The notes below the pieces were generated by a model. It was not told where the DNA came from and did no database searches. It saw only the letters and a list, made by a program, of their open reading frames with translations. From a virus, in the IMG/VR virus record IMGVR_UViG_3300032284_000524, positions 1 through 35,385 of that record: 35,385 nucleotides of DNA, one strand, 5' to 3'. Shown here in pieces: positions 7,501 through 33,562 of this stretch (positions within the stretch are counted from its first letter, which is position 1; each line of letters begins with the position of its first letter). The translations under genes and the position numbers were made by a program.

Positions 7501-7541
7501 TATATCTACATATGCAAATAAAAGGACATTTTCGCCCTTTT
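7501..7541 (-). promoter_or_regulatory. Phage late promoter element, copy 5
   Basis: Read on the minus strand it is AAAAGGGCG, 15 bp, then TTGCATATGTAGATATA, the most diverged of five copies but with identical spacing. It begins inside the TAA of the upstream Trp-rich gene and ends 17 bases before the GNAT-like gene. It should drive the internal-virion block. Confidence 0.7.
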
Positions 7542-7806
7542 AATGACTAGGACCGTTAATACTTAATGTAACGGCTTCAGCCCAATCTTGCCAATTTTCA
7601 AAACTATCTGGATTTGGTATTGGGTACGCTAAAAAAGTTGAAATAGATGCTATGTGTCTAGCTGCGGATTGCCAATTATCTTCTGGTTCTAACGGTATGT
7701 TTTCTTGACCGTACCAGATAGCAAAGTTACCATTCCAATCTTCCCAAGTCGAGTAATTGGAAGAAAATGGAAAAAATGCTTGTACACTACGGGCGTTCGT
7801 CGCCAT
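7540..7806 (-). CDS. Small Trp-rich virion-associated protein, 88 aa
   Basis: I place the start at the ATG at 7806 (MATNARSVQAFFPF). A longer frame upstream lacks an ATG and would only lengthen the overlap with the nozzle gene. With this start the overlap is 20 bases. The protein carries several spaced Trp/Tyr residues (YSTWEDWNGNFAIWYG, DNWQSAARH, ENWQDWAEAV) and is predicted soluble and mostly helical. Short proteins of this kind occur beside nozzle genes in related environmental podoviruses, but I know no assigned function. The stop codon runs into promoter copy 5, so it is the last gene of its block. A role as a tail-accessory or assembly protein is a guess. Confidence 0.75.
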   Translation of the reverse strand: MATNARSVQAFFPFSSNYSTWEDWNGNFAIWYGQENIPLEPEDNWQSAARHIASISTFLAYPIPNPDSFENWQDWAEAVTLSINGPSH

Positions 7807-9925
7807 ACTCTGCCGTAATAATGTTACGACCCATTTCAAAGTTACCGCCTAAGTCATTAGACTCAAACTTAATACGAAGCAAACGATACTCAACACGTAA
7901 ATCAATTTTACCAGTCATATCATCAAAATAATAAGGACCAGATATTTGTGAATCAACATCATCATCGGCAAATTTACGACCTAAAATAGTCATTGACATT
8001 TTTCCAGATTGTAAGAAATTAGGTTCAAAACGTCTAATATGCATACGACGATTAATACCTTGTAGGCTATCACCACTTGGGCTACCACCAACCCAACTTA
8101 AATCACTAGTAGTAATACTAGAGTAAATAGCAAATTCACCCATATTATTAACCATGTTATATCCACTTTCATGTTGCCATAATGTATAACCGCCACTAGC
8201 AACATATGTTGGCTGACCAACGCCTACAGAAATTAAAAATACGGATGAACAGGTTACTAATGTAACACCAGGTGTACCAATTGTAGTATTAAAAATATTA
8301 ACACTGCTAGTAATTAAATAAACAGTATCACTAGGTGTGGTAGAGAATGATATATAATCGCCAGGACTAAATTTACCCGTTTGGTCGCCAGTTAAATAAA
8401 ATTGATTGTTGGTTGGCGGGTTTAATCCAGTGGGTGTAGCAATTGTTAAATTAGGGGGTGTATATTGAACGTTTAAATTCCAATCCGCCCAAATAGGGCT
8501 TGGGAACAATTCTGTCGTATAGCCACAAGAACGCTGTGAACCAACCGCTTGACCTGCGTCATACCAAATTTGGTCTTTGGTATTATAAATAATAGCATCG
8601 TTACACTCTGTTGAAGTGCCACGGGGATAGAAAAACCAAATCTCGTTATATCTTGGAATCTTAGTGGCCCATACTTTTTGACGTTGTTCATAATTAATGT
8701 TGTCAAATAAGTAGTTTACATTTTTATCGTTATCTAATACTTTTACACCACCGTTGTAAAGATAGAACCTATCAATACCCATCCAATAATAAGTCCCATC
8801 CATTTCAACAACTGCGTTGGATGATATGATAGAGATTTGGCTTGAAACAATATCGTATGACCAATAAGGTGCAGTAGTATTGCCAGATAAGAAAGACACA
8901 CGAACTAAGGAATCTGTTGCCCAAAATAATCCAGATGGTGAGTTGGTACCACCACGCATTGTCATACCTTTTACAATTTTGGATGCTGATACGTTAACTT
9001 GGTTAGCTAATGGCCCATTCCAATCATATAATGTTTGTTCTGTATAAATACTGCTAACATTGTTATTGGCTAAGAAACCAGTAGTACCATACACAAATAT
9101 AAATGGATACAAAACACAAACACCACCAGAAACTGAAATAGGCTTGTACGTTGGTTGCTGACCGGCCGTATCCGCAAGTCCCGTAAAAGTCCAGCTATTA
9201 CCGGTAGAAGGCGCCACATTACCAACCAATACTTGAGACGGTACACCGTTATCAATATTAGTTAAGTTTTTACCAGGATGAGCTAATAAACTAAGTTGTG
9301 TTGTAGTTGGGTTGAACAGCGCATCAAACTGCCAATCATTTACAAACGGACCACTTGCGGGATCCGGCGAAAATGTTGGTACATTATTTAACCAAACCGT
9401 TGTTGGTGTTCCTGAGTATGGCTGTGTTAAAGTAATTGTTGTATCTGGTGAAGAGTATACTGATGTTTGTATTGTATAATTAGACGGGCTAGTTTGACTA
9501 AAAATAACCATAGAGCCGGGTGTAAAAACCGATGTTACGTCTCCAGAAACTGTAAACGAACTACTTGAGGTAAGCATTTTAATTTTTGCAAATGTTGTGC
9601 CAGGTAATATTTCCACTGGAAACGGTCCAATACCTGTACCGAAAGATAAACCAGTTGTAAACACATCTAACTCAAATGCATTACCAGCAAAAATATAGTT
9701 AATACCTTCATATGGTACTGCAATTAATCCACGATAAATTCCACTGAAACTAGAAAACAATTGACGATAGCCACCCATTTTACGGGCGCGTTCACGCTGA
9801 AAACGACACCAAACACCATCTGTAAATTCTTCTGTTTCAAACACAGTACCATCACGTTTTATACCGGGTTTAACCGCAACGGTATAAATATAATCGTATT
9901 GTGATAAATTAGAATCACTTGCCAT
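7787..9925 (-). CDS. Tail nozzle/hub protein (P22 gp10 / T7 gp12-like), 712 aa
   Basis: Likely the nozzle or stabilisation hub that closes the portal-connector channel and carries the fibres. The N-terminus (KPGIKRDGTVFETEEFTDGVWCRFQ) and the series of beta-propeller-like blades resemble phage DNA-stabilisation and tail-tubular B proteins. Especially telling is the stretch near residues 365-460 with MDGTYYWMGIDRFYLYNGG, VWATKIPRYNEIWFFYPRG and NDAIIYNTKDQIWYDAG. Its length lies between P22 gp10 (about 470 aa) and T7 gp12 (about 790 aa). Residues 480-590 appear to be an inserted beta-rich Thr/Ser/Pro domain. It directly follows a fibre gene, sharing one base with its stop. The assignment is by remembered family pattern. 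Confidence 0.85.
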   Translation of the reverse strand: MASDSNLSQYDYIYTVAVKPGIKRDGTVFETEEFTDGVWCRFQRERARKMGGYRQLFSSFSGIYRGLIAVPYEGINYIFAGNAFELDVFTTGLSFGTGIGPFPVEILPGTTFAKIKMLTSSSSFTVSGDVTSVFTPGSMVIFSQTSPSNYTIQTSVYSSPDTTITLTQPYSGTPTTVWLNNVPTFSPDPASGPFVNDWQFDALFNPTTTQLSLLAHPGKNLTNIDNGVPSQVLVGNVAPSTGNSWTFTGLADTAGQQPTYKPISVSGGVCVLYPFIFVYGTTGFLANNNVSSIYTEQTLYDWNGPLANQVNVSASKIVKGMTMRGGTNSPSGLFWATDSLVRVSFLSGNTTAPYWSYDIVSSQISIISSNAVVEMDGTYYWMGIDRFYLYNGGVKVLDNDKNVNYLFDNINYEQRQKVWATKIPRYNEIWFFYPRGTSTECNDAIIYNTKDQIWYDAGQAVGSQRSCGYTTELFPSPIWADWNLNVQYTPPNLTIATPTGLNPPTNNQFYLTGDQTGKFSPGDYISFSTTPSDTVYLITSSVNIFNTTIGTPGVTLVTCSSVFLISVGVGQPTYVASGGYTLWQHESGYNMVNNMGEFAIYSSITTSDLSWVGGSPSGDSLQGINRRMHIRRFEPNFLQSGKMSMTILGRKFADDDVDSQISGPYYFDDMTGKIDLRVEYRLLRIKFESNDLGGNFEMGRNIITAEYGDERP

Positions 9926-11184: not shown

Positions 11185-11187
11185 GTA

Positions 11188-12869: not shown

Positions 12870-13037
12870 TTATCGTCCTCTACCAGAAGCTCTTTTATTT
12901 ACTTTATTAGGTAATTTATTTGATGCTGGACCAGCCTTTACAAACTCTTTACCAACCTTTTTAGGTATGCCGAGCGTAGATTTACCTTCCGCTGCGGCAT
13001 ACATTGCACCTTGTTGAGCTTTAGATTTGTATGGCAT
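12870..13037 (-). CDS. Small basic protein, 55 aa
   Basis: The real start is the ATG at 13037, one base after the stop of the 255-aa gene. A longer in-frame extension upstream is only a shadow of that gene. The sequence begins [20 protein letters not shown] and is very Lys/Gly/Ala-rich, ending KRASGRGR. Short proteins starting with PYKSKAQxxxMxAA are common next to structural genes in phages of aquatic bacteria. I know no experimentally established function. The strong positive charge suggests nucleic-acid or capsid-interior contact, for example as a minor internal component. It stays in the connector operon, ending exactly at the next ATG. Confidence 0.8.
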
Positions 13038-13038
13038 A

Positions 13039-13806
13039 TTAGCAAGCCTTTTTAACTTTACCACCACGTTTTTGAGCTGGCATATTAGTTGCATTACCCA
13101 TTGTATCAACGGGAGGCATAGGTTGACCAGTGGGAGCTGCTGGAGCTGATGGAGCACCAGCGTTTAAACCCGCCAATCCCATTGCCATACTTTCTCCAGG
13201 ACCCATTGATTTGCCTGCTGCTTGTTCTAATTGTTTAGCTTTTAAGTATTTAGCCATTGATAATTTAGCAGCTTCATTTTGCTCAGGAGTTCCCATTACT
13301 CTATTTTTTATTCGAGTTCCTAAATCACCAGCCGCTTGACCTATGCTACTTAGGACACCACCACCTTCATCATACTTTTTTATTTTGCCACCTTTTTTAT
13401 ATTTATTAGGCATTTCTTCAACACCAGATTTAGCATCTGCTTTTCCTGGTTTAATATCTTTAGTTTTTTTAATTCTGTCTAAATCGCCAGATGCTTTTTT
13501 AGCTCCATAAACATTTTCAACGTTACCGCCAGATTTATATTTACGAACGATAGCATTTTCTTTTTTAGAACGACCACCTTTTTTCAGTTTAATTTCTGTA
13601 GGCTCTTTGTCATGCTCAGATTCGTCATGTTGTTTAAAAGCTTTTTTAATAAGCTTTTTGTCTTGAGCCAAATCTTCACCCATTTCTTCTGATTCAGCGT
13701 GACCGCCTGCTTTCATGGCTTTTCCGCCACCGCAGTAGTCTTCTGATTTAGCGTGTCCACCTGTTTTAAAGTGTGCCATTTTTGGTAGTGTCTTAAATCC
13801 GTCCAT
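13039..13806 (-). CDS. Lys/Gly-rich virion-associated protein with GG motifs, 255 aa
   Basis: First gene after promoter copy 4, with a good ribosome binding site (GAGGAAA) eight bases before the ATG. The protein is highly charged and probably largely disordered. It contains a series of short motifs of the form aromatic/Lys-x-x-GG: FKTGG, MKAGG, LKKGG, YKSGG, YKKGG, YDEGGG and KRGG, spread from residue 13 to the end. A helical Ala/Met-rich part covers 145-215, and a Pro-rich stretch lies around 220-240. I recognise no enzyme domain. Similar GG motifs occur in the large virion proteins downstream, which suggests a shared assembly or processing feature. The role is unknown; it is likely structural because of its operon. 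Confidence 0.8.
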
Positions 13807-13850
13807 TTTATTTCCTCGAGGTTAAATTAGTTAAGAGAGTGATCAGCTCC

Positions 13851-13891
13851 TAATACTACTTATGCAACAAATACGTTAAAAATGCCCTAAA
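13851..13891 (-). promoter_or_regulatory. Phage late promoter element, copy 4
   Basis: On the minus strand it is TTTAGGGCA, 15 bp, then TTGCATAAGTAGTATTA. The TAG of the endolysin gene is inside the upstream box. The downstream box ends 44 bases before the 255-aa gene. It should start the connector/nozzle block. Confidence 0.8.
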
Positions 13892-14402
13892 TATCAGTCA
13901 AAAACAGTTCTTTTTCTTTTCTTCGGCGATTTGTAAGTTCTGGCGGGTGTACCCAATCCATAAAATATTGACCCGCTAATTTGTACTGCCCTGCATTAAG
14001 TGCTTTTACCAACCTAGACGTTTTAAACCCATTGGGTCCAATATTGAAGCAAAGGCTGTACAAAGCATCGTATTGGTTCTGGGTAAGGGGTACACTCACA
14101 GAACTCGTAACGGCCTCGTCACACCAGCTTAAATCGTGTCTAAGGAGCTCGTGTACCTCTTTGTCTGTCAGTTCGGTAGTGATTAGGTGTGGCTCATCTG
14201 GTTTTATAAGATGGCCAACGCCAATTGTCCACAAGCCACGCGAATCTTTGTAGGCCTTGTTGCGCTTACCTTCTAAATTAACAATAAGGTTTAGGGTTGA
14301 TTCTGCAATAGCCATAATTTTATTCTCTATAATAATGGGAGTTTTGGGAAATAAAAATACAAATAGGCACAACCACGCCACTAAAAATGCTTTTCTATTC
14401 AT
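13887..14402 (-). CDS. Endolysin, T4-type lysozyme (GH24) with N-terminal hydrophobic segment
   Basis: Cleaves the peptidoglycan glycan backbone for host lysis. The catalytic triad of the T4 lysozyme family is intact with exact family spacing: Glu44 in NLEGKRNKAY, Asp53 in YKDSRG and Thr59 in WTIGVGH. Residues 5-19 (AFLVAWLCLFVFLFP) form a hydrophobic N-terminal segment, either a signal-anchor-release (SAR) segment or a cleaved signal peptide. A second in-frame ATG at residue 30 would give a 142-aa soluble enzyme that relies on a holin, so two forms are possible. The long start overlaps the Rz stop as ATGA, which favours coupled translation from it. The TAG stop lies inside promoter copy 4. 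It is the last gene of a 12-kb block. Confidence 0.93.
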   Translation of the reverse strand: MNRKAFLVAWLCLFVFLFPKTPIIIENKIMAIAESTLNLIVNLEGKRNKAYKDSRGLWTIGVGHLIKPDEPHLITTELTDKEVHELLRHDLSWCDEAVTSSVSVPLTQNQYDALYSLCFNIGPNGFKTSRLVKALNAGQYKLAGQYFMDWVHPPELTNRRRKEKELFLTDI

Positions 14403-15257: not shown

Positions 15258-15265
15258 AAGTGTTC

Positions 15266-16559: not shown

Positions 16560-17363
16560 TTAAGCTTGTATTGCAACAGCCGGAACATCCCAGTATGAGT
16601 CTGCCGCATTCCACACACAACCAACGTAGACTGTTTTACTGGCGGCAATAGCCGTGGGCAATGTTGTCCCAATTACACGATATCCACCAGTCGTGGTTGT
16701 CCAAGATATTGACTGACCAGAGCCACTGTCTTTAATACGAATAGAAAGTTTTTGACCATCCGTTGGGGTACCGCTAGGCGCCGCAAAAGTTGCTGTCGTG
16801 GAAAGTGCCGTGACATTATATTGGTCAGCATTATCAGACGACGGTGTTATAGTTGTTGCTGAAGAAAGCGAGACAATACGCTGGGTAATTCTTTTGTTTG
16901 TCAGCGTCTGTGTATCGGTAGTACCAACGATAGCGCCCGCTGGCGCAGTTAATGATGTACTCCAAGCTGAACCTGTGGAGACTGCAATGCCAGCTCCTGG
17001 GTATGCTGTTGGACCCGTTGCACCACTGTAGCCAGAGATACCACTAAAGCCAGAGATACCACTATAGCCAGAAATGCCACTATAGCCAGAAATGCCACTA
17101 TAACCACTATAGCCAGAAATGCCACTATAGCCAGAAATGCCACTGTAACCAGAAATACCGCTGTAACCACTGTAGCCAGAAATACCACTGTAGCCAGAAA
17201 GTCCAGCTAAGTTTTTAACTACGCCAGAGGTGTTTTTATAAAATAGGTATCCATCAGCAATATTAAGTGCCAATTCACCTAATGCTAAATTGCCAGATGA
17301 GGGTTGATTTCCTGGTGTAATACTATAATATAGTTCTATGGGTGTGTAGCCAGATTGTGCCAT
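16560..17363 (-). CDS. Short collagen-like Gly-X-Ser repeat fibre, 267 aa
   Basis: Three parts are visible. Residues 1-52 (YTPIELYYSITPGNQPSSG, NLALGELALNIADGYLFYKN) match the N-terminal particle-binding segment of many phage fibres. Residues 54-118 are 9-nt-periodic Gly-Tyr/Ile/Phe-Ser triplets (GYSGISGYSG type). The rest, especially residues about 200-267, is a small beta domain (DGQKLSIRIKDSGSGQSISWTT, then GGYRVIGTTLPT, KTVYVGCVWNAADSYWD). That last domain is a paralogue of the C-terminal end of the 1065-aa fibre at 20991-24188. The glycosyltransferase cassette lies between these two related fibre genes. Triplets without proline would form at best an unusual triple helix; a polyglycine-type fold is an alternative. 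Confidence 0.85.
   Translation of the reverse strand: MAQSGYTPIELYYSITPGNQPSSGNLALGELALNIADGYLFYKNTSGVVKNLAGLSGYSGISGYSGYSGISGYSGISGYSGISGYSGYSGISGYSGISGYSGISGFSGISGYSGATGPTAYPGAGIAVSTGSAWSTSLTAPAGAIVGTTDTQTLTNKRITQRIVSLSSATTITPSSDNADQYNVTALSTTATFAAPSGTPTDGQKLSIRIKDSGSGQSISWTTTTGGYRVIGTTLPTAIAASKTVYVGCVWNAADSYWDVPAVAIQA
17022..17200. repeat. Short GYSG-coding array
   Basis: About 180 bp of imperfect 9- to 15-bp units (plus strand: variations of ccactatagccagaaat) encode Gly-X-Ser triplets in the 267-aa fibre. It matches in type the two large arrays of the giant fibre gene. It is coding and in frame. Confidence 0.85.
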
Positions 17364-17365
17364 TT

Positions 17366-20990: not shown

Positions 20991-23900
20991 TTATTGCGTA
21001 AATGCTACAGCGTCCCAATACACATCTTGCGAATTATAAATACACCCCACATAAAGTACTGTGCTGGCTGTAGTTGAAGTTGGTAATGTGATTCCTTTGG
21101 CTCGATAGCCACCAGAGGTTGTTGTCCATGTCAGTGTTTGTGTAGTTCCATTATCTTTAATACGAATAATTAGTTTTTGCCCATCTACTGGTGTTCCACT
21201 AGGAGCTAAAATTGTCGCTGATACTGCAAGTGCTGTTACCTCATACTGAGTAACAGTTGTCGTTGGTGTAATGCTTGAGGCTGAGGTAGTTGATGTTGTT
21301 GAGACATAGACACCACTGTAGCCAGAGTATCCCGATGTTCCAGAATAACCAGAAATACCACTATAACCAGATACACCAGAACCACTATATCCAGAGTATC
21401 CAGAAGTGCCCGTTGAACCAGTAGCACCACTATAACCAGATATACCAGAACCACTATATCCAGAGTATCCAGAAGTGCCCGTTGAACCAGTAGCACCACT
21501 ATAACCAGATACACCAGAACCACTATATCCAGAGTATCCAGAAGTACCTGATGAACCAGTAGCGCCACTATATCCGCTATAACCAGAAATACCAGAACCG
21601 CTGTATCCCGATATACCAGAGCCACTATAGCCAGAATAACCCGATACGCCAGAGCCACTATAGCCAGAATATCCAGATATACCAGAGCCACTGTAGCCTG
21701 ATATACCAGAGCCACTGTAACCAGAAAACCCACTATAACCAGAAATACCAGAACTTCCCGTAGCACCAGAGATACCACTAAATCCAGAATAACCAGAATA
21801 TCCAGATGTTCCAGTTGAACCGTTTAGTCCACTATACCCAGATGTTCCGCTGAATCCACTATAGCCAGATGTACCTACTTGACCGCTATAGCCAGAAAAA
21901 CCACTATAGCCAGATGTTCCCGTGCTACCCGTATCACCAGAGATACCACTAAATCCAGAAAATCCACTATAACCAGAATAGCCAGATGTTCCCGTATTGC
22001 CCATTGGACCACTGTACCCCGATATTCCACTAAATCCAGATATACCACTATATCCCGATGTTCCGCTATATCCTGAGTAACCAGAAATGCCAGAACTACC
22101 AGTAGCACCAGAAATACCGCTAAATCCGCTATAACCTGAATAGCCAGATGTTCCTGTTGCACCAACAGGCCCACTGTAACCAGAAATTCCACTAAACCCA
22201 GACATACCACTATAGCCAGAAAAACCACTATATCCAGAATAACCAGAAATACCAGAGCTACCAGTAGCGCCAGAGATACCACTAAATCCAGAGTAACCAG
22301 AGTAGCCAGATGTTCCCGTTGTTCCTATTTGACCGCTGTAGCCAGAATAACCAGAAATACCAGAGTAGCCAGATACACCAGAGCCACTGTAACCAGATAT
22401 GCCAGAACCAGAATAACCAGATATACCACTGTAACCAGATAAACCCGATGTTCCACTATAGCCAGATATTCCACTATATCCAGATTTACCACTGTAACCA
22501 GATATTCCGCTATAACCAGATAAACCTAATCCGCTATAACCAGAGTAACCAGAGTAGCCAGAAAATCCGCTAATGCCGTTAGTAACAGCAAAAATAACAT
22601 CTAAATTATTTGCAAAGTTAGTTGTGCCAGTACCCGATGAATTAATTAAAGTTACTGGATATGTCCAATAACTATTGAAAGAACCTGGGTTTGTATTAGT
22701 TGGGGTACCAGTTACTTGCCATACTTGATAATTTGAACTATTAGTTCTGTCTTGAATTGTAAAATCTTCGGTTTGAACTATTAACGCTAAGAAAATATCA
22801 ACGTCAGTACCAGTAAATGTTAAGTGTGAAACTGAAATTTGTGTTGCGTTAATTTGTGTTGCGTTATTCCAAGTAATTAATCCATTACCCGGGTAGCCCG
22901 AAGTAATTGTTGTATTAGCTTCGTATTGAAATGATGTGGAAGAACTTCCTGGTGTTCCACTATATCCACTGTAACCAGATACACCACTATAGCCTGATAT
23001 ACCACTATAACCAGAAGCTCCACTATAGCCAGATTTTCCACTGTAACCAGATATTCCACTGTAGCCAGATACACCAGAACCGCTGTATCCCGAGTAACCT
23101 GATACACCAGAGCCACTATAACCAGACACTCCACTAAATCCAGAGTAGCCAGATACACCAGAGCCACTATAACCAGATTGTCCAGAAGTACCACTGAAAC
23201 CACTATATCCAGAGTAGCCAGATACACCAGAGCCACTGTAGCCTGATATACCACTAAATCCAGAGTAGCCAGATACACCAGAGCCACTATAGCCAGAGTA
23301 ACCAGACACTCCAGAACCACTATAGCCAGATTGACCAGAAGTACCACTAAAGCCACTATAACCAGAATAGCCAGATACACCAGAGCCACTGTAGCCAGAT
23401 ATACCACTAAATCCAGAATAACCAGATACGCCAGAGCCACTATAACCAGACGGGCCACTAAATCCAGAGTAGCCGGATGTTCCAATACCACTGTAGCCAG
23501 AGATACCACTAAAACCAGAGTACCCACTATACCCAGATACACCCGAACCACTGTACCCAGATTCACCACTAAAGCCAGATACCCCAGACATGCCACTATA
23601 ACCAGAGGCACCACTTAGTCCAGAATAGCCAGAAAGCCCAGATACCCCACTATAACCCGATACACCTGAGAAGCCACTATAGCCACTGTAACCGCTTATT
23701 CCTGATCCAGAATACCCTGATATACCAGAGAAGCCAGAAAGCCCAGAAACACCGCTATAGCCAGAATAGCCACTAATACCAGAATAGCCAGAAAAACCAG
23801 CTCCACTAGCACCACTAGCTCCAGAGTAACCAGATGCACCAGAATAACCAGACACCCCAGAATAACCAGATGTACCAGAATAACCAGAACCACCAACACC

Positions 23901-24188
23901 ACTATAACCAGAAAATCCAGAAAAACCACTAAAGCCACTGTAGCCAGAAAAACCGCTAAATCCAGAGACGGGACCAACAACTTGTGTTGAGCCGTCGCTG
24001 TAATAGATTATTAAATCGCCGTTTGTTGGGTTGTAAATAATGTTGGTAATCAATTTACCAGGCGACGCAGCATTAGCAATCTGTGATACAGACGCTTGCT
24101 TTGTTACACCGTTTTGTACGACTGGTACTTGCTCATTACCCGTTAAGGTAGTTGCGACCGGTAGTTGGGTTATACTTTGATCAGCCAT
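20991..24188 (-). CDS. Giant collagen-like Gly-X-Ser repeat tail fibre, 1065 aa
   Basis: I place the start at ATG 24188 (MADQSITQLPVATTLTG), directly after the stop of the upstream gene. An ATG eight codons earlier lacks a ribosome site. Residues 1-75 resemble N-terminal fibre segments (TGNEQVPVVQNGVTKQASVSQI, NPTNGDLIIYYSDGSTQVVG). Two long blocks of Gly-Tyr/Phe/Ile/Val-Ser triplets follow, roughly residues 76-415 and 537-960, separated by a non-repetitive beta domain (QYEANTTITSGYPGNGLITW to LDVIFAVTNG). Residues about 980-1065 form a beta domain shared with the 267-aa fibre. Triplet register is often shifted by SGSGVSG or GATGSTG. Probable role: long trimeric fibre for host recognition. 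Proline is nearly absent, unlike animal collagen. Confidence 0.88.
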   Translation of the reverse strand: MADQSITQLPVATTLTGNEQVPVVQNGVTKQASVSQIANAASPGKLITNIIYNPTNGDLIIYYSDGSTQVVGPVSGFSGFSGYSGFSGFSGFSGYSGVGGSGYSGTSGYSGVSGYSGASGYSGASGASGAGFSGYSGISGYSGYSGVSGLSGFSGISGYSGSGISGYSGYSGFSGVSGYSGVSGLSGYSGLSGASGYSGMSGVSGFSGESGYSGSGVSGYSGYSGFSGISGYSGIGTSGYSGFSGPSGYSGSGVSGYSGFSGISGYSGSGVSGYSGYSGFSGTSGQSGYSGSGVSGYSGYSGSGVSGYSGFSGISGYSGSGVSGYSGYSGFSGTSGQSGYSGSGVSGYSGFSGVSGYSGSGVSGYSGYSGSGVSGYSGISGYSGKSGYSGASGYSGISGYSGVSGYSGYSGTPGSSSTSFQYEANTTITSGYPGNGLITWNNATQINATQISVSHLTFTGTDVDIFLALIVQTEDFTIQDRTNSSNYQVWQVTGTPTNTNPGSFNSYWTYPVTLINSSGTGTTNFANNLDVIFAVTNGISGFSGYSGYSGYSGLGLSGYSGISGYSGKSGYSGISGYSGTSGLSGYSGISGYSGSGISGYSGSGVSGYSGISGYSGYSGQIGTTGTSGYSGYSGFSGISGATGSSGISGYSGYSGFSGYSGMSGFSGISGYSGPVGATGTSGYSGYSGFSGISGATGSSGISGYSGYSGTSGYSGISGFSGISGYSGPMGNTGTSGYSGYSGFSGFSGISGDTGSTGTSGYSGFSGYSGQVGTSGYSGFSGTSGYSGLNGSTGTSGYSGYSGFSGISGATGSSGISGYSGFSGYSGSGISGYSGSGISGYSGYSGSGVSGYSGYSGSGISGYSGSGISGYSGYSGATGSSGTSGYSGYSGSGVSGYSGATGSTGTSGYSGYSGSGISGYSGATGSTGTSGYSGYSGSGVSGYSGISGYSGTSGYSGYSGVYVSTTSTTSASSITPTTTVTQYEVTALAVSATILAPSGTPVDGQKLIIRIKDNGTTQTLTWTTTSGGYRAKGITLPTSTTASTVLYVGCIYNSQDVYWDAVAFTQ
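21306..22576. repeat. GYSG-coding array 2
   Basis: About 1.27 kb of degenerate coding repeats with 9-bp basic periodicity (Gly-X-Ser codons), grouped in larger units that include GATGSTG or GPVGATG spacers. It encodes the distal repeat block of the giant fibre. The array is nearly free of the complex sequence that marks the domains on either side. Confidence 0.9.
21361..21567. repeat. Three near-identical 69-bp tandem units
   Basis: Within GYSG array 2, units starting at 21361, 21430 and 21499 repeat with a 69-bp period (23 codons, containing SGYSGYSGSG, a Val or Ile, SGYSG and GATGSTG). Copies 1 and 2 are almost identical. Copy 3 differs at its end. This indicates recent in-frame duplication. 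Confidence 0.8.
22948..23965. repeat. GYSG-coding array 1
   Basis: About 1.0 kb of degenerate Gly-X-Ser coding repeats encoding the proximal block of the giant fibre. Larger units of the type GYSGSGVSGYSGYSGFSGTSGQ recur at least twice. It is separated from array 2 by about 370 bp of ordinary coding sequence. Confidence 0.9.
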
Positions 24189-24189
24189 C

Positions 24190-24810
24190 TTATGTGTATG
24201 TAAATCCACCATGGAAGGTGGTTGAACCGAATGGAGAAATTGCTGTTATATCGGCAACGCCAGTAACCGCTGATACTGGGGCAACCGCAGTAATTGTTGT
24301 TGAATTAACAATATTAAATGAAGCTGGCAATCCTTCAAATTTAACTGTTGTCACATCGGTAAAGTTAGCGCCAGTAATAGTAACTGGTGTCATTGCTGTA
24401 CGACCACCGCTTGACGGTGACACAGAGTAAATGTAAGGATTTAATGTTTGAGGTGTTGGTTGAACATTACTCATTGTATTTAAATCGCCTTGAGTATTGT
24501 AACTTGGAACACCATCAATAAAGATTGAATTAACATCAAGACCAAATTCGCCTTGAGTTTGAATTTGATTGCCACCAATTGGACCTGTTGCCACAGAAAC
24601 ATCTGGGCGTGGGAATCGTAGTGCAATGTTTTCAGTTTGACGCGCGGGTAGGCGCCACGGGTCAAAATTATCTAAATCTTCTTTACAGACTCGCATGCCT
24701 GGAAAGTTAGGGTCCGGCATGAGCTCGACATAAGGAAACTTTCTGTTGCAGCGATCACACACCGCAACAGAAAGTACCGAATTACCTCGAGTGTCAAGAT
24801 AGACTGGCAT
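24190..24810 (-). CDS. Zinc-ribbon plus IPT/TIG-domain virion protein, 206 aa
   Basis: Two modules are visible. The N-terminus holds Cys18-x2-Cys21 (VCDRCNRKF) and Cys42 (RVCKEDLDNFDPW), a short zinc-knuckle-like element common in small phage structural proteins; the fourth ligand is not certain. Residues about 125-206 are an immunoglobulin-like IPT/TIG domain (NPYIYSVSPSSGGRTAMTPV, ITGANFTDVTTVKFEGLPAS, GVADITAISPFGSTTF). Ig-like domains of this kind decorate capsids and fibres and may bind carbohydrates weakly. The gene sits between head-type proteins and the giant fibre, whose start follows its stop by one base. Probable role: capsid decoration or fibre attachment. The zinc binding is inference. 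Confidence 0.85.
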   Translation of the reverse strand: MPVYLDTRGNSVLSVAVCDRCNRKFPYVELMPDPNFPGMRVCKEDLDNFDPWRLPARQTENIALRFPRPDVSVATGPIGGNQIQTQGEFGLDVNSIFIDGVPSYNTQGDLNTMSNVQPTPQTLNPYIYSVSPSSGGRTAMTPVTITGANFTDVTTVKFEGLPASFNIVNSTTITAVAPVSAVTGVADITAISPFGSTTFHGGFTYT

Positions 24811-24819
24811 TTAATTGCC

Positions 24820-25632: not shown

Positions 25633-25657
25633 AATTAATTTCCTTTAAAAGTTAAGA

Positions 25658-25675: not shown

Positions 25676-25682
25676 AGGCAAA

Positions 25683-26255
25683 TTAATTATTGGTGTAACC
25701 TTGACCAACGTTGATGATAGAACCTGTGTAATTACGTGCTGTGTAATCTACAGAAATAGTACCACCCAAAGAACCGCTTGACAATGTTGTTACAGCAGCC
25801 GCAGAAAATGTTAATGTTGCGTCTAGTGTGCCAATGTTTTCAAGGATAGCAGCAGTTGCAGCAGTCGCTGTAAATACACCAGTAATAAGACCACCAGCGG
25901 CAGTCGGGGTAATTGTTCCGATTGCTGTAGTTGTAACTGCACCAGTTGTTGGGTTAGTTTGAGCGATTGAAACTGTGATTACACCACCAACTAAACCACC
26001 TGCAGCTACGTCTTGGTATAGTTTAAAACCTTCAATAATTGCGCCAGCTGGTAATACGAAAGGAGTTGCTGTTGTTTGACCAATATCTGCCGTTGTTAGA
26101 GTAGTAGCACCAACCGTAGTTGTTGTAATTGGGTTGGTAATGTAACTTTGTTGTGAGCAACGAGCTGCACCAGTATTATCTGGGGCGATTACGCCGTTGT
26201 TTGTTGGGTTGTTATATTTATAGATTCGGACTGGGCCGGTATAAGAGACTGACAT
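25683..26255 (-). CDS. Probable capsid decoration or head structural protein, 190 aa
   Basis: First gene after promoter copy 3 and the structured leader, with ribosome site AGGAAA. After a polar start (SVSYTGPVRIYKYNNPTNNGVI) it is an Ala/Thr/Gly/Val beta-rich protein with alternating strands (AIIEGFKLYQDVAAGGLVGG, VITVSIAQTNPTTGAVTTT, TLDATLTFSAAAVTTLSSGS). It ends SIINVGQGYTNN. There are few Lys/Arg/Glu residues, as in virion surface proteins. Its own promoter, long leader and downstream hairpin suggest high, separately controlled expression, as for an abundant virion protein. I do not recognise a named family. Capsid decoration is inferred from position directly after the major capsid gene. 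Confidence 0.8.
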   Translation of the reverse strand: MSVSYTGPVRIYKYNNPTNNGVIAPDNTGAARCSQQSYITNPITTTTVGATTLTTADIGQTTATPFVLPAGAIIEGFKLYQDVAAGGLVGGVITVSIAQTNPTTGAVTTTAIGTITPTAAGGLITGVFTATAATAAILENIGTLDATLTFSAAAVTTLSSGSLGGTISVDYTARNYTGSIINVGQGYTNN

Positions 26256-26277
26256 TTTTATTTCCTATCAAGAGGGA

Positions 26278-26343
26278 ATCCACAATAGATACTTGACTAT
26301 CTCACCGGGTAGATTACGGGAGCTATATGTGGATGATTCTACC
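26278..26343 (-). ncRNA. Structured 5' leader with predicted pseudoknot
   Basis: In the leader between promoter copy 3 and the 190-aa gene, two perfect helices interleave. GGUAGA (26343-26338) pairs with UCUACC (26313-26308), and AUCCACA (26334-26328) pairs with UGUGGAU (26284-26278). This is the order of an H-type pseudoknot. A third hairpin, AGATA/TATCT with a 6-base loop (26287-26302), sits in the last loop. It could regulate translation, act as a protein-binding site or stabilise the mRNA. The pairing was found by eye and not folded by computer. Confidence 0.5.
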
Positions 26344-26384
26344 TATAACTACTTATGCAATATTTTTAATAATAACGCCCTAAA
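26344..26384 (-). promoter_or_regulatory. Phage late promoter element, copy 3
   Basis: On the minus strand it is TTTAGGGCG, 15 bp, then TTGCATAAGTAGTTATA. It starts just downstream of the T-run of the capsid terminator and precedes the 190-aa gene with an 88-base leader. It should drive the long fibre, glycosyltransferase and lysis block. Confidence 0.82.
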
Positions 26385-26387
26385 ATG

Positions 26388-26412: not shown

Positions 26413-26435
26413 TTTTTGCTCTGCGGAGGTTTGGA

Positions 26436-27353
26436 TTACAAACCAGGTGTTCCGTAGATGTTACGTGCGTCGTGCCAACCAGTAGCGTAACGCTCTGTGG
26501 CCTTATAACGCATAGAATCAGTCTCGAAGTCACCTTCCATGGATTTCTCCATTGGACGACGCATAACGAGCATGAGGCCATTTTCTGCATCAGTTTGAAT
26601 CCACCATGCTTTGGAAGATGACAAACGGGTTACAACGTGTGTACCCTTCGGCAACATACCAGTAGACTTGATTGGGTTCAAATCGTTATCAGCTGTACCA
26701 GAACGGAGAACAGACTTCAGAATTACTTCTGACTGGAACTCGAGTGCTGGTGGAACAACTAATTGCTCTGCCTTCAAGCGGATACGCTTACCGTTGTTGT
26801 CAACAGCAGAACGAATCTGAATGAGTAACTGCTCAACAGAAGTTTGTGATAATGAAGCGGCTGTGCTTAACTGGTTAGAGTAAGACGCACCGTTAGCGAT
26901 TGGGTGAGCAGTGTTAATCAAAGTCACGCCGTCGCCACCAGTGTAACCAGCTGTGAACGCAAAGTTCAACAAGTTAGCACATAATGTTTCCTTAGTTTCA
27001 ATCATAGACTGAGCTAAGTGTTTAGCGAAGGTGCTACCGATACGAATGTGGTCACCGTCTTCCATCAATACTTTGGTTAAAGCGTATGCTAAACCATAGA
27101 TTTGATAGATAAATCGTGTGATGTACAATGTACCACCTTGGTCATAGCTGACAGGAGTTCCGTCAGGCATCGCAGGTGCAGCATTCATACCGAAGAGCAT
27201 TACTTCTTCGTGATAGTTACGTGGAATACCCTGGATCTGTTCTACAAATCCCTTCCACTCGTCAGAGCGTTGTTCATAAACGCCATCAAAGACTTCGTTG
27301 ATAATCGGTTCGACTACCGCACGAAAGTCGGTACTACGCATTGGGGTTGCCAT
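26436..27353 (-). CDS. Major capsid protein, 305 aa
   Basis: Forms the icosahedral head shell. Supporting features are its length of about 300 residues, a helical start (MRSTDFRAVVEPIINEVFDGVYEQR) and a conserved-type middle (LAQSMIETKETLCANLLNFAF, GYTGGDGVTLINTAHPIANG). The C-terminal region has GMLPKGTHVVTRLSSSKAWWIQTDAENGL and ends ATGWHDARNIYGTPGL. These patterns are those of HK97-fold capsid proteins of environmental phages (gpT-like group). A strong ribosome site (AAAGGA) precedes the ATG and an intrinsic terminator follows the stop. The genes upstream are a decoration candidate, a scaffold candidate and a GroES-like co-chaperonin, the expected assembly partners. Codon use looks cleaner and more GC-rich than in the fibre genes, in line with high expression. 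Confidence 0.9.
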   Translation of the reverse strand: MATPMRSTDFRAVVEPIINEVFDGVYEQRSDEWKGFVEQIQGIPRNYHEEVMLFGMNAAPAMPDGTPVSYDQGGTLYITRFIYQIYGLAYALTKVLMEDGDHIRIGSTFAKHLAQSMIETKETLCANLLNFAFTAGYTGGDGVTLINTAHPIANGASYSNQLSTAASLSQTSVEQLLIQIRSAVDNNGKRIRLKAEQLVVPPALEFQSEVILKSVLRSGTADNDLNPIKSTGMLPKGTHVVTRLSSSKAWWIQTDAENGLMLVMRRPMEKSMEGDFETDSMRYKATERYATGWHDARNIYGTPGL

Positions 27354-27374
27354 TGCTTATCCTTTCGTTGTTAA

Positions 27375-28037: not shown

Positions 28038-28067
28038 ATTGTCATTTTCCTTTGTTTTTGAAGAATG

Positions 28068-28625: not shown

Positions 28626-28630
28626 TTTAA

Positions 28631-29617: not shown

Positions 29618-29638
29618 TTTCTACTTTCTACAAAGTTA

Positions 29639-30082
29639 TTAATCTACAAACGCTTTCATTTTCTGTGCATACTCAAAACTCTTGATGCGAGAAATGATTT
29701 CACGGGCCTGAAGAGTAATGAATACCACGGGGGCACCTTCATCATCAGGGTTAACAACAAAACGATCTCCACCATACTTGATAGTGCGAACCAAATCACC
29801 AACTTGGCACCAAGGACCTTCAATCCACGGCGTTAAGTCTTCTGGCGATTTGTATGCTAAGGGCCCAATTTGGACGACTTTTGCAACAGTCTCATTGAAT
29901 CGTAACGTTTGTCTGGTCTCATCAACTAAGATGATTCCGCCTTTGCTGGTTACTTTTTCTCTGCGCAATTGCACAAGTACTCTGTCCCCAGCTACGTCAA
30001 CACCAGTATCAATCACAGGAAAACATTCTTCTTCCGTTCGTGTATCTGGCTCGTCTCTACTATTTAAATCATATGCTGCCAT
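29639..30082 (-). CDS. GroES-like co-chaperonin (Cpn10 fold), 147 aa
   Basis: Caps the host GroEL chamber to fold phage proteins, most likely the major capsid protein. The Cpn10 pattern is clear: AGDRVLVQLRREKVTSKGGIIL (31-52) with the GGIIL mobile-loop core that contacts GroEL, VAKVVQIGPLAY (67-78), VGDLVRTIKYGGDRFVV (94-110) and FITLQAREIISRI (121-133). It is longer than bacterial GroES (about 97 aa), with an extra 28-residue acidic N-terminus, an insert around 76-90 and a short C-terminal tail. Phage equivalents include T4 gp31. Ribosome site AAGGAG is strong. It is the second gene of the capsid block, before scaffold and capsid, which fits the proposed client. Confidence 0.9.
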   Translation of the reverse strand: MAAYDLNSRDEPDTRTEEECFPVIDTGVDVAGDRVLVQLRREKVTSKGGIILVDETRQTLRFNETVAKVVQIGPLAYKSPEDLTPWIEGPWCQVGDLVRTIKYGGDRFVVNPDDEGAPVVFITLQAREIISRIKSFEYAQKMKAFVD

Positions 30083-30112
30083 ACGGCAATACTCCTTGCA
30101 CCCTACGGCGCT

Positions 30113-30301
30113 TTAGTTGTTATCATCCTCATTTAAGAGGGCTTCTAGAATCGAGGTGGCTTGTTTTAAACCGTCTCGAGTACCCAGTACTCTTTGATAT
30201 GTATCAAAGCTGTGGATATTGGAACCTGAAGCTAGGACTTCGGTTGTTTCTTTGTCCGCTTCTTTCAAGCGGCTAATAAATTCGGAAATTAAGTCCTTCA
30301 T
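30113..30301 (-). CDS. Small helical protein, 62 aa, possible leaderless start
   Basis: I place the start at ATG 30301 (MKDLISEFISRLKEADKETT). The A of this ATG is the last base of promoter copy 2, so transcription would begin at or near the start codon and no ribosome site can be transcribed. A TTG at 30340 would give a longer frame, but this reads through the promoter element and also lacks a ribosome site. The protein is acidic and helical (TRDGLKQATSILEALLNEDD) without recognisable domain. It is the first gene of the capsid block, before the co-chaperonin. Function unknown; an assembly or regulatory factor is possible. Confidence 0.75.
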   Translation of the reverse strand: MKDLISEFISRLKEADKETTEVLASGSNIHSFDTYQRVLGTRDGLKQATSILEALLNEDDNN

Positions 30302-30341
30302 ATTACTACTTATGCAAAGGAGCGGAATATTCCGCCCCAAA
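30301..30341 (-). promoter_or_regulatory. Phage late promoter element, copy 2
   Basis: On the minus strand it is TTTGGGGCG, 15 bp, then TTGCATAAGTAGTAATA. It lies directly after the stop codon of the 77-aa gene and ends on the A of the next ATG. Its spacer contains the perfect palindrome GCGGAATATTCCGC (30321-30334), unique to this copy. It should drive the capsid block. Confidence 0.82.
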
Positions 30342-30343
30342 GC

Positions 30344-30577
30344 TTAATAAAAGTTACCGCCACCAATGTCTTTAAGGTTTTTATCTGGTCCAACTTTAGA
30401 AGGCTTGGTGTTTTTTGCTTGTGCAGCACCAATTTTCCAGTTGTTATCACGATGTGAGCCAGATGGGCCGTTATCAATTGTTGTTTCGCCTGGACCACCA
30501 CCAAAACCAGGTGTGCCAGTCATTTGATATGTTTTACGGAAGCCTAATTCGCCACCGTCTTGTTTTTTAGTTGCCAT
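30344..30577 (-). CDS. Small Gly/Lys-rich hypothetical protein, 77 aa
   Basis: The ATG shares its last base with the portal stop region, so translation is coupled. The protein is polar and probably disordered (GFRKTYQMTGTPGFGGGPGE, then AAQAKNTKPSKVGPDKNLKD), ending GGGNFY. It has no hydrophobic segment, Cys or recognisable motif. Small proteins of this kind often accompany portal genes in podoviruses, but I know no function. It closes the portal block, and its TAA is followed within a few bases by promoter copy 2. Confidence 0.75.
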   Translation of the reverse strand: MATKKQDGGELGFRKTYQMTGTPGFGGGPGETTIDNGPSGSHRDNNWKIGAAQAKNTKPSKVGPDKNLKDIGGGNFY

Positions 30578-33495
30578 TATTGTCCTTCAATAGGTTGTTG
30601 TGGTTGCATTTGTGGTTGTTGCTCCATCTGTTGCTGATTTTGCATCATTTGTTGCTGATGCTGTTGGTCATTTTGTTGGAAGGTTTGCACATGCTGTTGG
30701 TCAGCCTGTTGTATCTGCTGTTGATGCTGTTGTGCCGCTTGTTCTATCTGTTGCTGATGTTGTTGCTGTGCTTGTGCTGCTTCCATTTGCTGTTGTACTG
30801 CTTGTGCTTGTTGTTGGAATGCTTGTTGCTGAACTTGTAGTCCATGCTGACGTATATCTTGCTCTGAAGCATTGATAGCCTCCATAGCAGATTGATTTTG
30901 TGTTGCGTCAAGGGCAAGTTGTTGCTGACTCATTTGAGCTTGTGCAGTAATCATTGCTACACGCTCTTTAGCAGCATTGTTAATATTTGCTTTTGCAATA
31001 TCTGTAGCGTTACGTTGGTTATCAATGTTAGTTTGTGTTGAATACTTTGCTTGTAACTCTTGAACTTTTTGTTGTAACTCAGCAACTTTAAGTTGAAACT
31101 CTTGTTGTGCTTGCTGTAAATCTGCTTGCATCTTCGCTTGTGACTCTTGAGCTTTACGTTGTGTCTCAGCCATCTGAGTTTTCATAATTACGTTAGCCGT
31201 TGGGTCAGCCAATGCAGTTTGTTCAACTTGTGCTTGTTGCGCTTGTTGTGCTTTTTGTGCTAATTGCTGAATTGCTGGCATAAATGACGCAAATTCTTGT
31301 TGTGTCTGTTGTGATACCAATTGTCCAGCGATTGCCAACGCTTGTTGGTCTTCTCTACTTAATGCACGTTCTTCGTGTAGTTTTAAAATGTCACTGCCGT
31401 CAGTTGCTGCAGCCACATGACCCTTCATGGACTGTAAATAATGCAATGTAACGTGCTGTTCAATGTGTTTTAACACTTGTGGTAAGAATGTTGGAGCCAT
31501 AATTGGGCTTCCACCATAATTTGGATCCATCGCAAACATTAAATGCACTTTGATATGTGCTAAATGGTCTTGGTCTGGGAAAGCCGCTGCCATACGACCC
31601 ATTGACATTGAAACATTCTCAAGTGCTGGGTTAGATTCGTTAATTCCTTGCGGATTTGGCAAAATTTCTTGTATATTTGGTATTTTCATCTGACGCAAAA
31701 TGCGTAAATGGGCTTCACGTAAGTCATAAAGCTGTGGTGCACTGTTTGCTAACTGTAAAATTGCTTGTGCTTGGGCTAAACGCTGTGTTTCAGAGAAAAT
31801 ATTAGGGTCGGATACAGGACGAATGTCGTTATTAACTGCAAAATCACGAATTTCAATCTTTTCTCCGGAATCATTGGTCATTTCCTCCAAGTACCAATGA
31901 TTGATACGAGATAAAATCTGTAAAGACTTGGCTTGTGAACGGTGTAAACGTGCATGAATGCTTGAGAATACCTTGGCACCTTGCTCAATCAACGCTTGTG
32001 TAGTACCAACTGGAGCATTGGCATTAATATCGCCAATCTTTTCTTCGGAAGTAGTAACAACACCCTTGGCTGCGTCAGTTAACCAACCTAAAAGACTCAT
32101 TAAAACGCTAGATGGCTGGTTAAATGGTAATGGCATTGCCAATTTACGTACATCATCGACACCAGGAGCACCCTCAATTTCAATTACTTGAGTGGGTTCA
32201 ATTCTATCAGACTGTCCACCAATGCGTCCACCTTTGAGTTTAAGCATGGTTTGAGAATTATTAATATGGGCAGCGTCCATAAGAGCGCGAAGAGCACCAG
32301 TAAGAGCAGCGGCAAGCCCACCAATAAGATGAGGCAATCCGATAGCATAAGCTCCACGCCAAGGAATGAATTTAAACTCGACATACCAGTCCAGTTTTTC
32401 CAGTTTGTCGTCGCCATATGCCCAGTTCCTATAAAGTGATAGTACTTTGTCTGTGGATTCGTCAATGGTTAAAATGTAAGGAGCACGTCTTCCTTCTGTT
32501 TCTGGGTCTTCATCCAAACGTAAGAAACAAGTAATTTCATAAACACGACGTACACCGTCCACGTTTTCAGAAGGCTTTGAAATACCTTCAATCTTATCAT
32601 TTGCTTCTTTTGACCTAGACTGCTCAACGCCATCAATGTTGGCAATATATGTGCTATCGATATCACGATAGATACCTTGCTCAATACGTTGCTTGTAAAT
32701 ATCTTCTGTAATATCTTGAACTTCTGTTACACGAGCTGAAGTGTAAAAGTTGGTTGATGCATAAGGTAACAAAATGCTATCAATTGGAATCCATTCACAC
32801 GTTGGGCGACACATTTCATAATCATAACGCCACTTCATATACTGTGAACCACCGAGCGGTAACTGCGTGAGCATCTGTTCCATCTCATCTCGGTATTCTT
32901 GAATTTGTTCTGTTAACTGCCAGTTAAGGAAGTTTGCTTTTCTTTCAGCAATTTCACTGCGGTTTTTTGTTTCTTCGCCACGAATATGAGATTTAACAAT
33001 CCCCTCTGGCGGTAACAGTTCGCGCGTGGTTGATGCAGCAAAGTCAACACACGACTCTGCCATAACAGGGTGAACGACTTTAGAAGCACCATCAAAGGTT
33101 GCGCCTCCAGGTGCGTCCTTACCTAAACCAGTACGGCGTAATCCATCTTCATACTGCTTGTCTCGTTCTTTACGAGCTTCTCTATCAATCTCAATTAAAT
33201 CTAAAAAATCAATTGCCAATGCATTTAAATCACCTTCATCAAACTCTTCAGCCAAGTTTGCATAAAACTCTGGGTCTTTGAGCGGACCTTCAGTCGGCAT
33301 AAAATTAATTACAACAGAACCGTCTTCCTGCTCGATAACATCCTCTTGAAGATCCATGTTATCATCAAGTCCGAGTGCATCTGCATAATCTTCAATGTCC
33401 TGTTCATTTAAGACATCGTCTTCAATAGTCGTATCCTGTCCAAGCGATGCCAAGTTGGCTCCAGCTTGTAGGGGAATTTGTGGTCCGAGTGCCAT
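30577..33495 (-). CDS. Portal protein with long Gln-rich C-terminal extension, 972 aa
   Basis: Forms the dodecameric DNA entry vertex. Residues about 80-640 match podovirus portal proteins in pattern: GGATFDGASKVVHPVMAESC, FAASTTRELLPPEGIVKSHI, IPWRGAYAIGLPHLIGGLAA, TGALRALMDAAHINNSQTML and EEKIGDINANAPVGTTQAL. The first 70 residues are acidic. From about 740 to the end the chain is one long, very Gln-rich helical region (AQKAQQAQQAQVEQ, QQQHQQQIEQAAQQHQQQIQ), which would form an extended barrel or coiled coil. At 972 aa it is clearly longer than P22 portal (725 aa), whose C-terminal barrel extends into the head. It directly follows the terminase in gene order, as is usual, and starts 27 bases after promoter copy 1. 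Confidence 0.88.
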   Translation of the reverse strand: MALGPQIPLQAGANLASLGQDTTIEDDVLNEQDIEDYADALGLDDNMDLQEDVIEQEDGSVVINFMPTEGPLKDPEFYANLAEEFDEGDLNALAIDFLDLIEIDREARKERDKQYEDGLRRTGLGKDAPGGATFDGASKVVHPVMAESCVDFAASTTRELLPPEGIVKSHIRGEETKNRSEIAERKANFLNWQLTEQIQEYRDEMEQMLTQLPLGGSQYMKWRYDYEMCRPTCEWIPIDSILLPYASTNFYTSARVTEVQDITEDIYKQRIEQGIYRDIDSTYIANIDGVEQSRSKEANDKIEGISKPSENVDGVRRVYEITCFLRLDEDPETEGRRAPYILTIDESTDKVLSLYRNWAYGDDKLEKLDWYVEFKFIPWRGAYAIGLPHLIGGLAAALTGALRALMDAAHINNSQTMLKLKGGRIGGQSDRIEPTQVIEIEGAPGVDDVRKLAMPLPFNQPSSVLMSLLGWLTDAAKGVVTTSEEKIGDINANAPVGTTQALIEQGAKVFSSIHARLHRSQAKSLQILSRINHWYLEEMTNDSGEKIEIRDFAVNNDIRPVSDPNIFSETQRLAQAQAILQLANSAPQLYDLREAHLRILRQMKIPNIQEILPNPQGINESNPALENVSMSMGRMAAAFPDQDHLAHIKVHLMFAMDPNYGGSPIMAPTFLPQVLKHIEQHVTLHYLQSMKGHVAAATDGSDILKLHEERALSREDQQALAIAGQLVSQQTQQEFASFMPAIQQLAQKAQQAQQAQVEQTALADPTANVIMKTQMAETQRKAQESQAKMQADLQQAQQEFQLKVAELQQKVQELQAKYSTQTNIDNQRNATDIAKANINNAAKERVAMITAQAQMSQQQLALDATQNQSAMEAINASEQDIRQHGLQVQQQAFQQQAQAVQQQMEAAQAQQQHQQQIEQAAQQHQQQIQQADQQHVQTFQQNDQQHQQQMMQNQQQMEQQPQMQPQQPIEGQ

Positions 33496-33521
33496 TAATT
33501 ATTTTCCATTGTTGTAATATC

Positions 33522-33562
33522 TATTACTACTTATGCAAATATGTTTAAGTTGTCGCCCTAAA
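33522..33562 (-). promoter_or_regulatory. Phage late promoter element, copy 1
   Basis: On the minus strand it is TTTAGGGCG, 15 bp, then TTGCATAAGTAGTAATA, the exact consensus. The TAG stop of the terminase gene is part of the upstream box. The portal ATG follows after 27 bases with GGAAAA as ribosome site. It should drive portal and the 77-aa gene. Confidence 0.82.

What the first reader, a model, noticed from the sequence alone, without database searches (positions are those of the whole stretch)
7501..33562. Five copies of a 41-bp bipartite element define the late transcription units
Minus-strand copies at 33522-33562, 30301-30341, 26344-26384, 13851-13891 and 7501-7541 share TTTAGGGCG, exactly 15 variable bases, and TTGCATAAGTAGTAATA. 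All have one orientation, sit in gene junctions after a stop codon or terminator, and precede the first gene of a functional block. In three of them (33558-33560, 13887-13889, and partly 7540-7542) the previous stop codon lies in the upstream box. It does not resemble a standard sigma-70 promoter: the -10-like CATAAG is poor and no -35 fits. This suggests a phage-specific late promoter, read either by host polymerase with a phage factor or by a phage polymerase encoded outside the window.
Basis: partly seen in the sequence, partly recalled or inferred. Interest (0 to 1): 0.75.

Follow-up and report, generated by a model that had tools for sequence, protein, structure and literature searches.

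The report
Phage late promoters and split sigma
The five repeats are very probably the start signals for this uncultured phage's middle and late genes, and related phages carry a two-piece specificity factor (one gene for each half of the signal) that would redirect the host's own RNA polymerase to them; no experiment was done.

Summary
A position-weight scan finds five sites, all minus strand, scoring 33-42 bits against 13 for the next. The quoted words are a consensus; only one copy matches them exactly.

It is a promoter of sigma-70 geometry: -35 GGGCG, 18-bp spacer, -10 [CT]AT[AT]A[GT], inferred start at an A 36 nt after the first G. Across 239 unique sites in related uncultured phages, T then A stand there in 97-98%, and an ATG begins exactly there in 61.

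The window (35 kb, structural genes) lacks the reader protein. Twelve of 13 relatives read at length encode a sigma factor that stops after region 3; eleven of them also show, usually 5-11 kb downstream, a separate ~100-residue protein that folds like sigma region 4, the -35 reader. GGGCG is constant across clades, while the -10 changes with the sigma (9 changes on its tree, 24 by chance). No T7-type polymerase was found.

Best reading: host core RNA polymerase with a phage-encoded split sigma. This resembles T4 gp55/gp33 and Bacillus RsoA-SigO, but is a new combination. All evidence is computational; host and transcript ends are unknown.

The parts
33522..33562 (-). Promoter copy 1: -35 box GGGCG 33554-33558, -10 hexamer CATAAG 33530-33535, predicted start A at 33522; drives portal gene 30577-33495 (27-nt leader). 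Stop codon of the terminase gene lies in the upstream box.
30301..30341 (-). Promoter copy 2: -35 GGGCG 30333-30337, -10 CATAAG 30309-30314, predicted start A at 30301, which is also the A of an ATG (leaderless 62-aa gene MKDLISEF..., within ORF 30113-30340); GroES and capsid genes follow. Spacer contains a GGAATATTCC hairpin followed by TTT.
26344..26384 (-). Promoter copy 3: -35 GGGCG 26376-26380, -10 CATAAG 26352-26357, predicted start A at 26344; preceded by a terminator-like hairpin after the capsid gene, followed by an 89-nt conserved leader and gene 25683-26255.
13851..13891 (-). Promoter copy 4: -35 GGGCA 13883-13887, -10 CATAAG 13859-13864, predicted start A at 13851; drives 13039-13806 and the tail/structural genes after it. 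Endolysin stop codon lies in the box.
7501..7541 (-). Promoter copy 5 (most divergent): -35 GGGCG 7533-7537, -10 CATATG 7509-7514, predicted start A at 7501; drives 7118-7483. The same junction in relative G001 carries a different -10 (TATTAG).
26256..26344 (-). Predicted structured 5' leader RNA of copy 3, conserved at the same junction in 13 genomes
   Evidence: no Rfam match
33558..35003 (-). Terminase large subunit (ends inside promoter copy 1)
30577..33495 (-). Portal (head-to-tail connector), first gene of unit 1
26436..27353 (-). Major capsid protein, end of unit 2
   Evidence: annotated relative

Best explanation
The element is a promoter for the phage's middle and late genes, used by the host's multisubunit RNA polymerase after the phage has supplied its own specificity factor. 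That factor comes in two pieces made by separate, probably early, genes (outside this window, seen in relatives): a 180-229-residue sigma-70-family protein with regions 1.2, 2 and 3, which reads and opens the -10 box (GCATAAG in this phage's clade), and a ~100-residue protein with a sigma-region-4 fold, which reads the GGGCG -35 box. Transcription starts at the conserved A, 36 nt after the first G of GGGCG; some genes begin with ATG at that very base and would be translated leaderless. Shown by sequence: the motif, its placement, the truncated sigma, the separate protein and its predicted region-4 fold, their linkage, and the correspondence of -10 type with sigma clade. Inferred: that the two proteins form one holoenzyme with host core, which box each reads, the start site, the timing, and that the window's own phage carries both genes.
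For: Five minus-strand sites at unit starts, next-best score far below. At least 118 stretches of viral contigs carry the strict pattern. Each of 12 long genomes with the sigma has 5-8 sites against at most 1.0 expected; a word count that assumed no motif recovered GGGCG with a clade-specific -10 at fixed spacing in four genomes. Sigma: Pfam regions 1.2, 2 and 3 above cut-off, none for 4; SigA match E 1e-30 over regions 1.2 to 3; 65 unique homologues all 180-229 aa. Partner: two AlphaFold models; Foldseek's best matches are sigma -35-binding domains (probability up to 1.00), and the 50 VIA-align rows of the second model are all sigma region 4; Pfam Sigma70_r4_2 is the family most members match (6 of 23, best E 0.0037). 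Linkage: partner downstream on the same strand in 59 of 60 loci; sigma upstream in 25 of 26 partner loci. -10 type tracks the sigma tree, 9 changes against 24.4 shuffled; residue aligned with RpoD T440 is N/Q/R/K in 37 of 37 sigmas with C at the first -10 base, E in 6 of 9 with T. ATG exactly at the start A in 61 of 239 sites. No PF00940 polymerase, T7 control rings. Isolated relatives without the sigma lack the motif.
Against: No transcript ends or biochemistry exist. The window holds neither protein gene; the link is by relatives. The partner's similarity to region 4 is not significant in direct sequence comparison with RpoD/RpoS, and Foldseek E-values are 0.1 to 1 because the domain is small; fold does not prove function. 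The E/T correspondence at the T440 position is one clade, so not independent; two R-bearing sigmas have T sites. Some rows of the sigma-promoter table rest on a single site. G005 ends before the partner would appear, and 6 of 53 sigma loci have no partner within about 10 kb.
Confidence: 0.8

Rival explanations
1. Host RNA polymerase with the phage sigma alone reads the -10, while GGGCG is bound by something else, or the small partner acts like T4 gp33: a flap-bound coactivator that does not read DNA.
For: T4 gp33 occupies the region-4 site without sigma sequence similarity (PMC2988020); the partner's similarity to region 4 is structural rather than clear in sequence.
Against: Unlike phiEco32 promoters there is a nearly invariant -35 box at fixed spacing in every clade; the partner's recognition-helix segment (TEKYWRYH) is almost invariant, matching the invariance of GGGCG.
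Confidence: 0.12
2. Promoter of a phage single-subunit (T7-like) RNA polymerase: 17 conserved bases before a TATA|GGA start look like a -17 to -1 promoter.
For: The downstream box is 17 nt and ends in TATA/TAATA before purines.
Against: No PF00940 match in seven long genomes with T7 as positive control; a second box at about -36 is foreign to that class; a sigma factor is present instead.
Confidence: 0.02
3. Host RNA polymerase with a host alternative sigma factor; the phage sigma serves other promoters.
For: Host unknown, host sigmas untested; the geometry is generic sigma-70.
Against: The -10 differs between phage clades in step with the phage sigma.
Confidence: 0.04
4. Intrinsic terminator or RNA processing element rather than a promoter: GGGC plus a GCCC-containing spacer and a T-run form a hairpin.
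For: Spacer carries GCCC/CGCC/GCCT in 31 of 239 sites against 5.8 expected, and box plus spacer fold more stably than with shuffled spacers.
Against: Most sites have no such hairpin, the most conserved part is downstream of it, and ATGs or conserved leaders begin at a fixed base after the element. A terminator fused to the promoter in a subset fits better.
Confidence: 0.02

Closest known systems
Bacteriophage T4 late transcription: gp55 plus gp33, described as a 'split sigma' (PMC2988020)
   Same: Host core RNA polymerase; specificity split over two small phage proteins, one at the region-2 site, one at the region-4 site; drives late genes.
   Different: gp33 has no discernible sequence similarity to sigma; from general knowledge T4 late promoters have only a -10 element and need the sliding clamp. 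Here regions 1.2-3 are kept in one protein and there is a strong -35 box.
[quoted passage not shown]
   Same: Sigma-4 and sigma-2 functions on two polypeptides that must cooperate.
   Different: Cellular, not phage; RsoA constitutes only domain 2, whereas this sigma keeps regions 1.2-3; here the two genes lie about 5-11 kb apart on one strand.
phiEco32 gp36 and Salmonella phage 7-11 gp47 sigma factors (PMC8948821)
   Same: Phage sigma directs host core to middle/late promoters; 7-11 promoters are bipartite.
   Different: 7-11 gp47 has region 4 in the same protein; phiEco32 gp36 lacks region 4 and its promoters lack a -35. Here region 4 is missing from the sigma but the -35 is present and a second gene has the region-4 fold.
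SPO1 gp33/gp34 late factors (general knowledge, not tested)
   Same: Two phage proteins needed for bipartite late promoters.
   Different: No sequence comparison made here; different phage type and promoter sequence.

Membership tests
Sigma-70-family promoter read by bacterial RNA polymerase | -35 and -10 boxes with about 17 bp between them and a start 5-8 nt after the -10 | tested here: met
   GGGCG / [CT]AT[AT]A[GT], spacer 18, 7 nt to the inferred start A; the start itself is inferred, not mapped
Sigma-70-family promoter read by bacterial RNA polymerase | Use by host core RNA polymerase with the cognate sigma | not testable with these tools
   needs in vitro transcription or RNA 5'-end mapping
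Sigma-70 family (phage protein of 180-229 aa) | Conserved regions 1.2, 2 and 3 | tested here: met
   Pfam PF00140, PF04542, PF04539 above cut-offs; SigA E 1e-30; PHROG 351
Sigma-70 family (phage protein of 180-229 aa) | Region 4 in the same protein (usual for the family) | tested here: not met
   65 unique homologues end after region 3; no region-4 match. It is filed as a truncated sigma
Two-subunit (split) sigma factor | Separate polypeptide with a region-4 fold encoded by the same genome | tested here: met
   AlphaFold models matched to sigma region 4; linked genes. Predicted fold and linkage only
Two-subunit (split) sigma factor | Both polypeptides needed together at the promoter | not testable with these tools
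   needs biochemistry
T7-like single-subunit RNA polymerase system | Single-subunit RNA polymerase gene in the genome | tested here: not met
   PF00940 silent in seven long genomes, rings in T7
T4 late type | -10-only promoters | tested here: not met
   -35 box GGGCG in all clades

The most novel reading that the evidence does not exclude
A widespread group of uncultured phages runs its middle and late genes with a split sigma factor in which each protein reads its own half of the promoter: a regions-1.2-to-3 sigma for a clade-specific -10, and a free-standing region 4 for an invariant GGGCG -35, so that both genes must be on before replication and late genes start.
Probability: 0.7. Interest if true: 0.8.

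Novelty: new variant of a known kind. Interest (0 to 1): 0.7.

Why it matters
It gives a complete, testable gene-control circuit for an abundant group of uncultured phages (hundreds of contigs; no isolate with both parts was found here). A sigma cut between regions 3 and 4, with both halves and their DNA boxes conserved, would let one ask with natural variants how -10 and -35 recognition are coupled and why such a split evolves. The natural -10 types paired with sigma variants are a ready specificity series. The motif also marks transcription units in metagenomic phages and points to leaderless late genes.

Tried and rejected
Single-subunit polymerase: PF00940 absent with positive control (the first search had no ringing control and was repeated). 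Sigma-54-type promoter: the GG and GC pairs are about 21 bp apart instead of about 12; rejected by geometry (own knowledge). Motif in isolated relatives (Manatee Spring phage MW202545, Caulobacter phage RW, Roseobacter phage CRP-901, Pelagibacter phage HTVC027P): none up to 2 mismatches, no sigma. Partner in annotated phages: no tblastn match. Partner by sequence against PDB, single Pfam scans of near relatives, RpoD/RpoS: not significant; only the wider family and the fold comparison gave sigma region 4. Host: a motif scan of prokaryote genomes found nothing and a sigma scan found matches of 33-38% identity, mostly in Marinimicrobia MAGs, that look like cellular sigma factors, so the host is unknown. 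Rfam: no match. Literature for a phage sigma with a separate region-4 protein reading a -35: none found in the searches made, weak evidence of absence because many journals are not held.

Full report
OBSERVATION. A weight matrix built from the five copies ranks them 1-5 over both strands of the window (42.4 to 33.0 bits) with the next window at 13.0. The exact consensus occurs once, none expected. The record is a 35,385-base viral contig and is all that is held of this phage. It contains structural genes: terminase, portal, GroES-like, capsid, tail proteins, endolysin. Each site sits at a gene junction and is followed by the first gene of a block. The stop-codon overlaps claimed for three copies are right. 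The quoted boxes are a consensus, not shared letter for letter.

HOW WIDESPREAD. The aligned sites show conservation from about TT[AG]GGGCG through TTGCATAAGTAG to a TA[GT][GA] end. Long relatives were then read: G001 (67,829 bases with a 47-bp end repeat, so probably complete), G003, G005, G006, G008, G009. The window's terminase, capsid and portal are 92, 94 and 81% identical to those of G001. Isolated phages with a related portal lack the motif.

THE START SITE. Before one small gene (MKDL...) in every clade, and before a second, unrelated gene (MKRL...) in several genomes, an ATG begins exactly 36 bases after the first G of GGGCG. Over 239 unique sites, position 35 is T in 97%, position 36 is A in 98%, and ATG begins at 36 in 61 sites; the next most frequent positions hold 22, most others 0 to 4. 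The simplest reading is a start at that A, with leaderless genes. Other sites have leaders whose conserved sequence begins right there. With that start, [CT]AT[AT]A[GT] lies 7 nt upstream and GGGCG 18 bp further, which is sigma-70 geometry. This is inference until 5' ends are mapped.

G001 encodes a 201-aa protein with sigma regions 1.2, 2 and 3 above Pfam cut-offs and no region 4, matching SigA over regions 1.2 to 3 at 1e-30. Sixty-five unique homologues are all 180-229 aa. The same genomes encode a ~100-aa protein first noticed by eye. Its sequence does not reach significance against RpoD, RpoS or PDB, and Pfam scans of near relatives give nothing relevant. In a wider set Sigma70_r4_2 is the family most members match (6 of 23, best E 0.0037). 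Two AlphaFold models have a confident C-terminal helical domain. The conserved VTEKYWRYH segment aligns by eye with the RpoD recognition helix beginning VTRERIRQI at residue 582.

LINKAGE AND CIRCUIT. The partner lies downstream of the sigma on the same strand in 59 of 60 loci holding both; 25 of 26 partner loci with enough upstream DNA have the sigma there. In the genomes with both, the first same-strand promoter after the partner lies 0.4 to 3.8 kb further on, and the remaining sites are almost all on the other, structural strand. One genome (G016) also has a site before the partner. This suggests, but does not show, that host sigma-70 makes both halves early and that they then switch on replication and structural genes. 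Neither gene is in the window.

CO-VARIATION. Genomes with more distant sigmas (about 50% identity) keep GGGCG and the spacing but use other -10 boxes: CATAAG (window clade), CATTAG, TATTAG, CATTAT/TATTAT. In G010, G011, G012 and G016 these were recovered by a gapped-word count that assumed no motif (the other top words there are coding repeats or low complexity). On the sigma tree the -10 type needs 9 changes against 24.4 for shuffled labels, 0 of 200 as low. At the position aligned with RpoD T440 (a known contact of the first -10 base, own knowledge), 37 of 37 sigmas with C there have N, Q, R or K; 6 of 9 with T have E. The E group is one clade, so this is suggestive only. Residue and promoter were compared in the same data in which the pattern was seen; an independent set would be needed as a test.

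PLACEMENT. In 14 genomes 71 of 80 sites are not deep inside an ORF although about 91% of the DNA is called coding; the exceptions include cases where the simple gene caller extended a leaderless gene upstream.

ALTERNATIVES. A T7-like polymerase is disfavoured. A terminator-only role does not explain the start position, although a subset of sites has a hairpin between box and spacer more often than chance. A gp33-like, non-reading role for the partner stays open.

KNOWN SYSTEMS. T4 gp55/gp33 has been called a split sigma (PMC2988020); SigO-RsoA is a cellular two-subunit sigma (PMC10028694); phage 7-11 has an unsplit sigma with bipartite promoters and phiEco32 a sigma without region 4 and promoters without a -35 (PMC8948821). 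The present case fills the remaining combination: a sigma without region 4, promoters with a -35, and a separate region-4-like protein. Hence 'new variant of a known kind'.

LIMITS. All evidence is computational. The sites, the sigma and the partner were followed adaptively, so the counts describe related phages and are not independent trials; many contigs are close relatives. The -10 type of some sigmas rests on one site. G008, a 35.6-kb fragment, has the sites but no sigma in the part held. The host is unknown.

Noticed in passing
window 26256-26344 (minus) and the same junction in 12 other genomes (e.g. L133 around 3420-3509): An ~89-nt leader after promoter copy 3 is conserved in all clades, with 6 of 13 predicted pairs changed on both sides in at least one sequence; further pairings (GGAAG with CTTCC, CTTAG with CTAAG) would form a pseudoknot. 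No Rfam match. Possible structured regulatory RNA.
   Followed up: partly
window 13807-13851 (minus); replication-strand sites of G010, G011, G013, G017: Other predicted leaders start with short hairpins (GGG-CTGATCA-CCC; CGTC-GGGA-GACG) within a few bases of the predicted start, as would stabilise mRNA 5' ends.
   Followed up: no
window 30301-30341 and many related sites: The GGGC box and spacer form a terminator-like hairpin with a T-run in a subset of sites (31 of 239 spacers carry a matching GCCC/CGCC/GCCT, 5.8 expected): terminator and promoter may be fused.
   Followed up: partly
G001 51496 (minus), counterpart of window copy 5: A TATTAG-type -10, typical of another clade, in a genome whose other exact sites are CATAAG; the window's own copy at this junction is also its most divergent.
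   Followed up: no
window 20991-24212 and 16560-17363: Long GYSG/SGFSG collagen-like repeat proteins in the tail region.
   Followed up: no
window 34994-35320; G001 13009-13986: ORF just upstream of the terminase looks by eye like an intein or Hint/homing fragment (ends ...VPAVHIETDVPFVVGAGFLPIWR).
   Followed up: no
partner protein N-terminus (e.g. L177, first ~25 residues): Near-invariant acidic motif RLSDEExDPxEQDD before the region-4-like fold, in nearly all homologues; role unknown, perhaps a contact with the sigma or polymerase.
   Followed up: no
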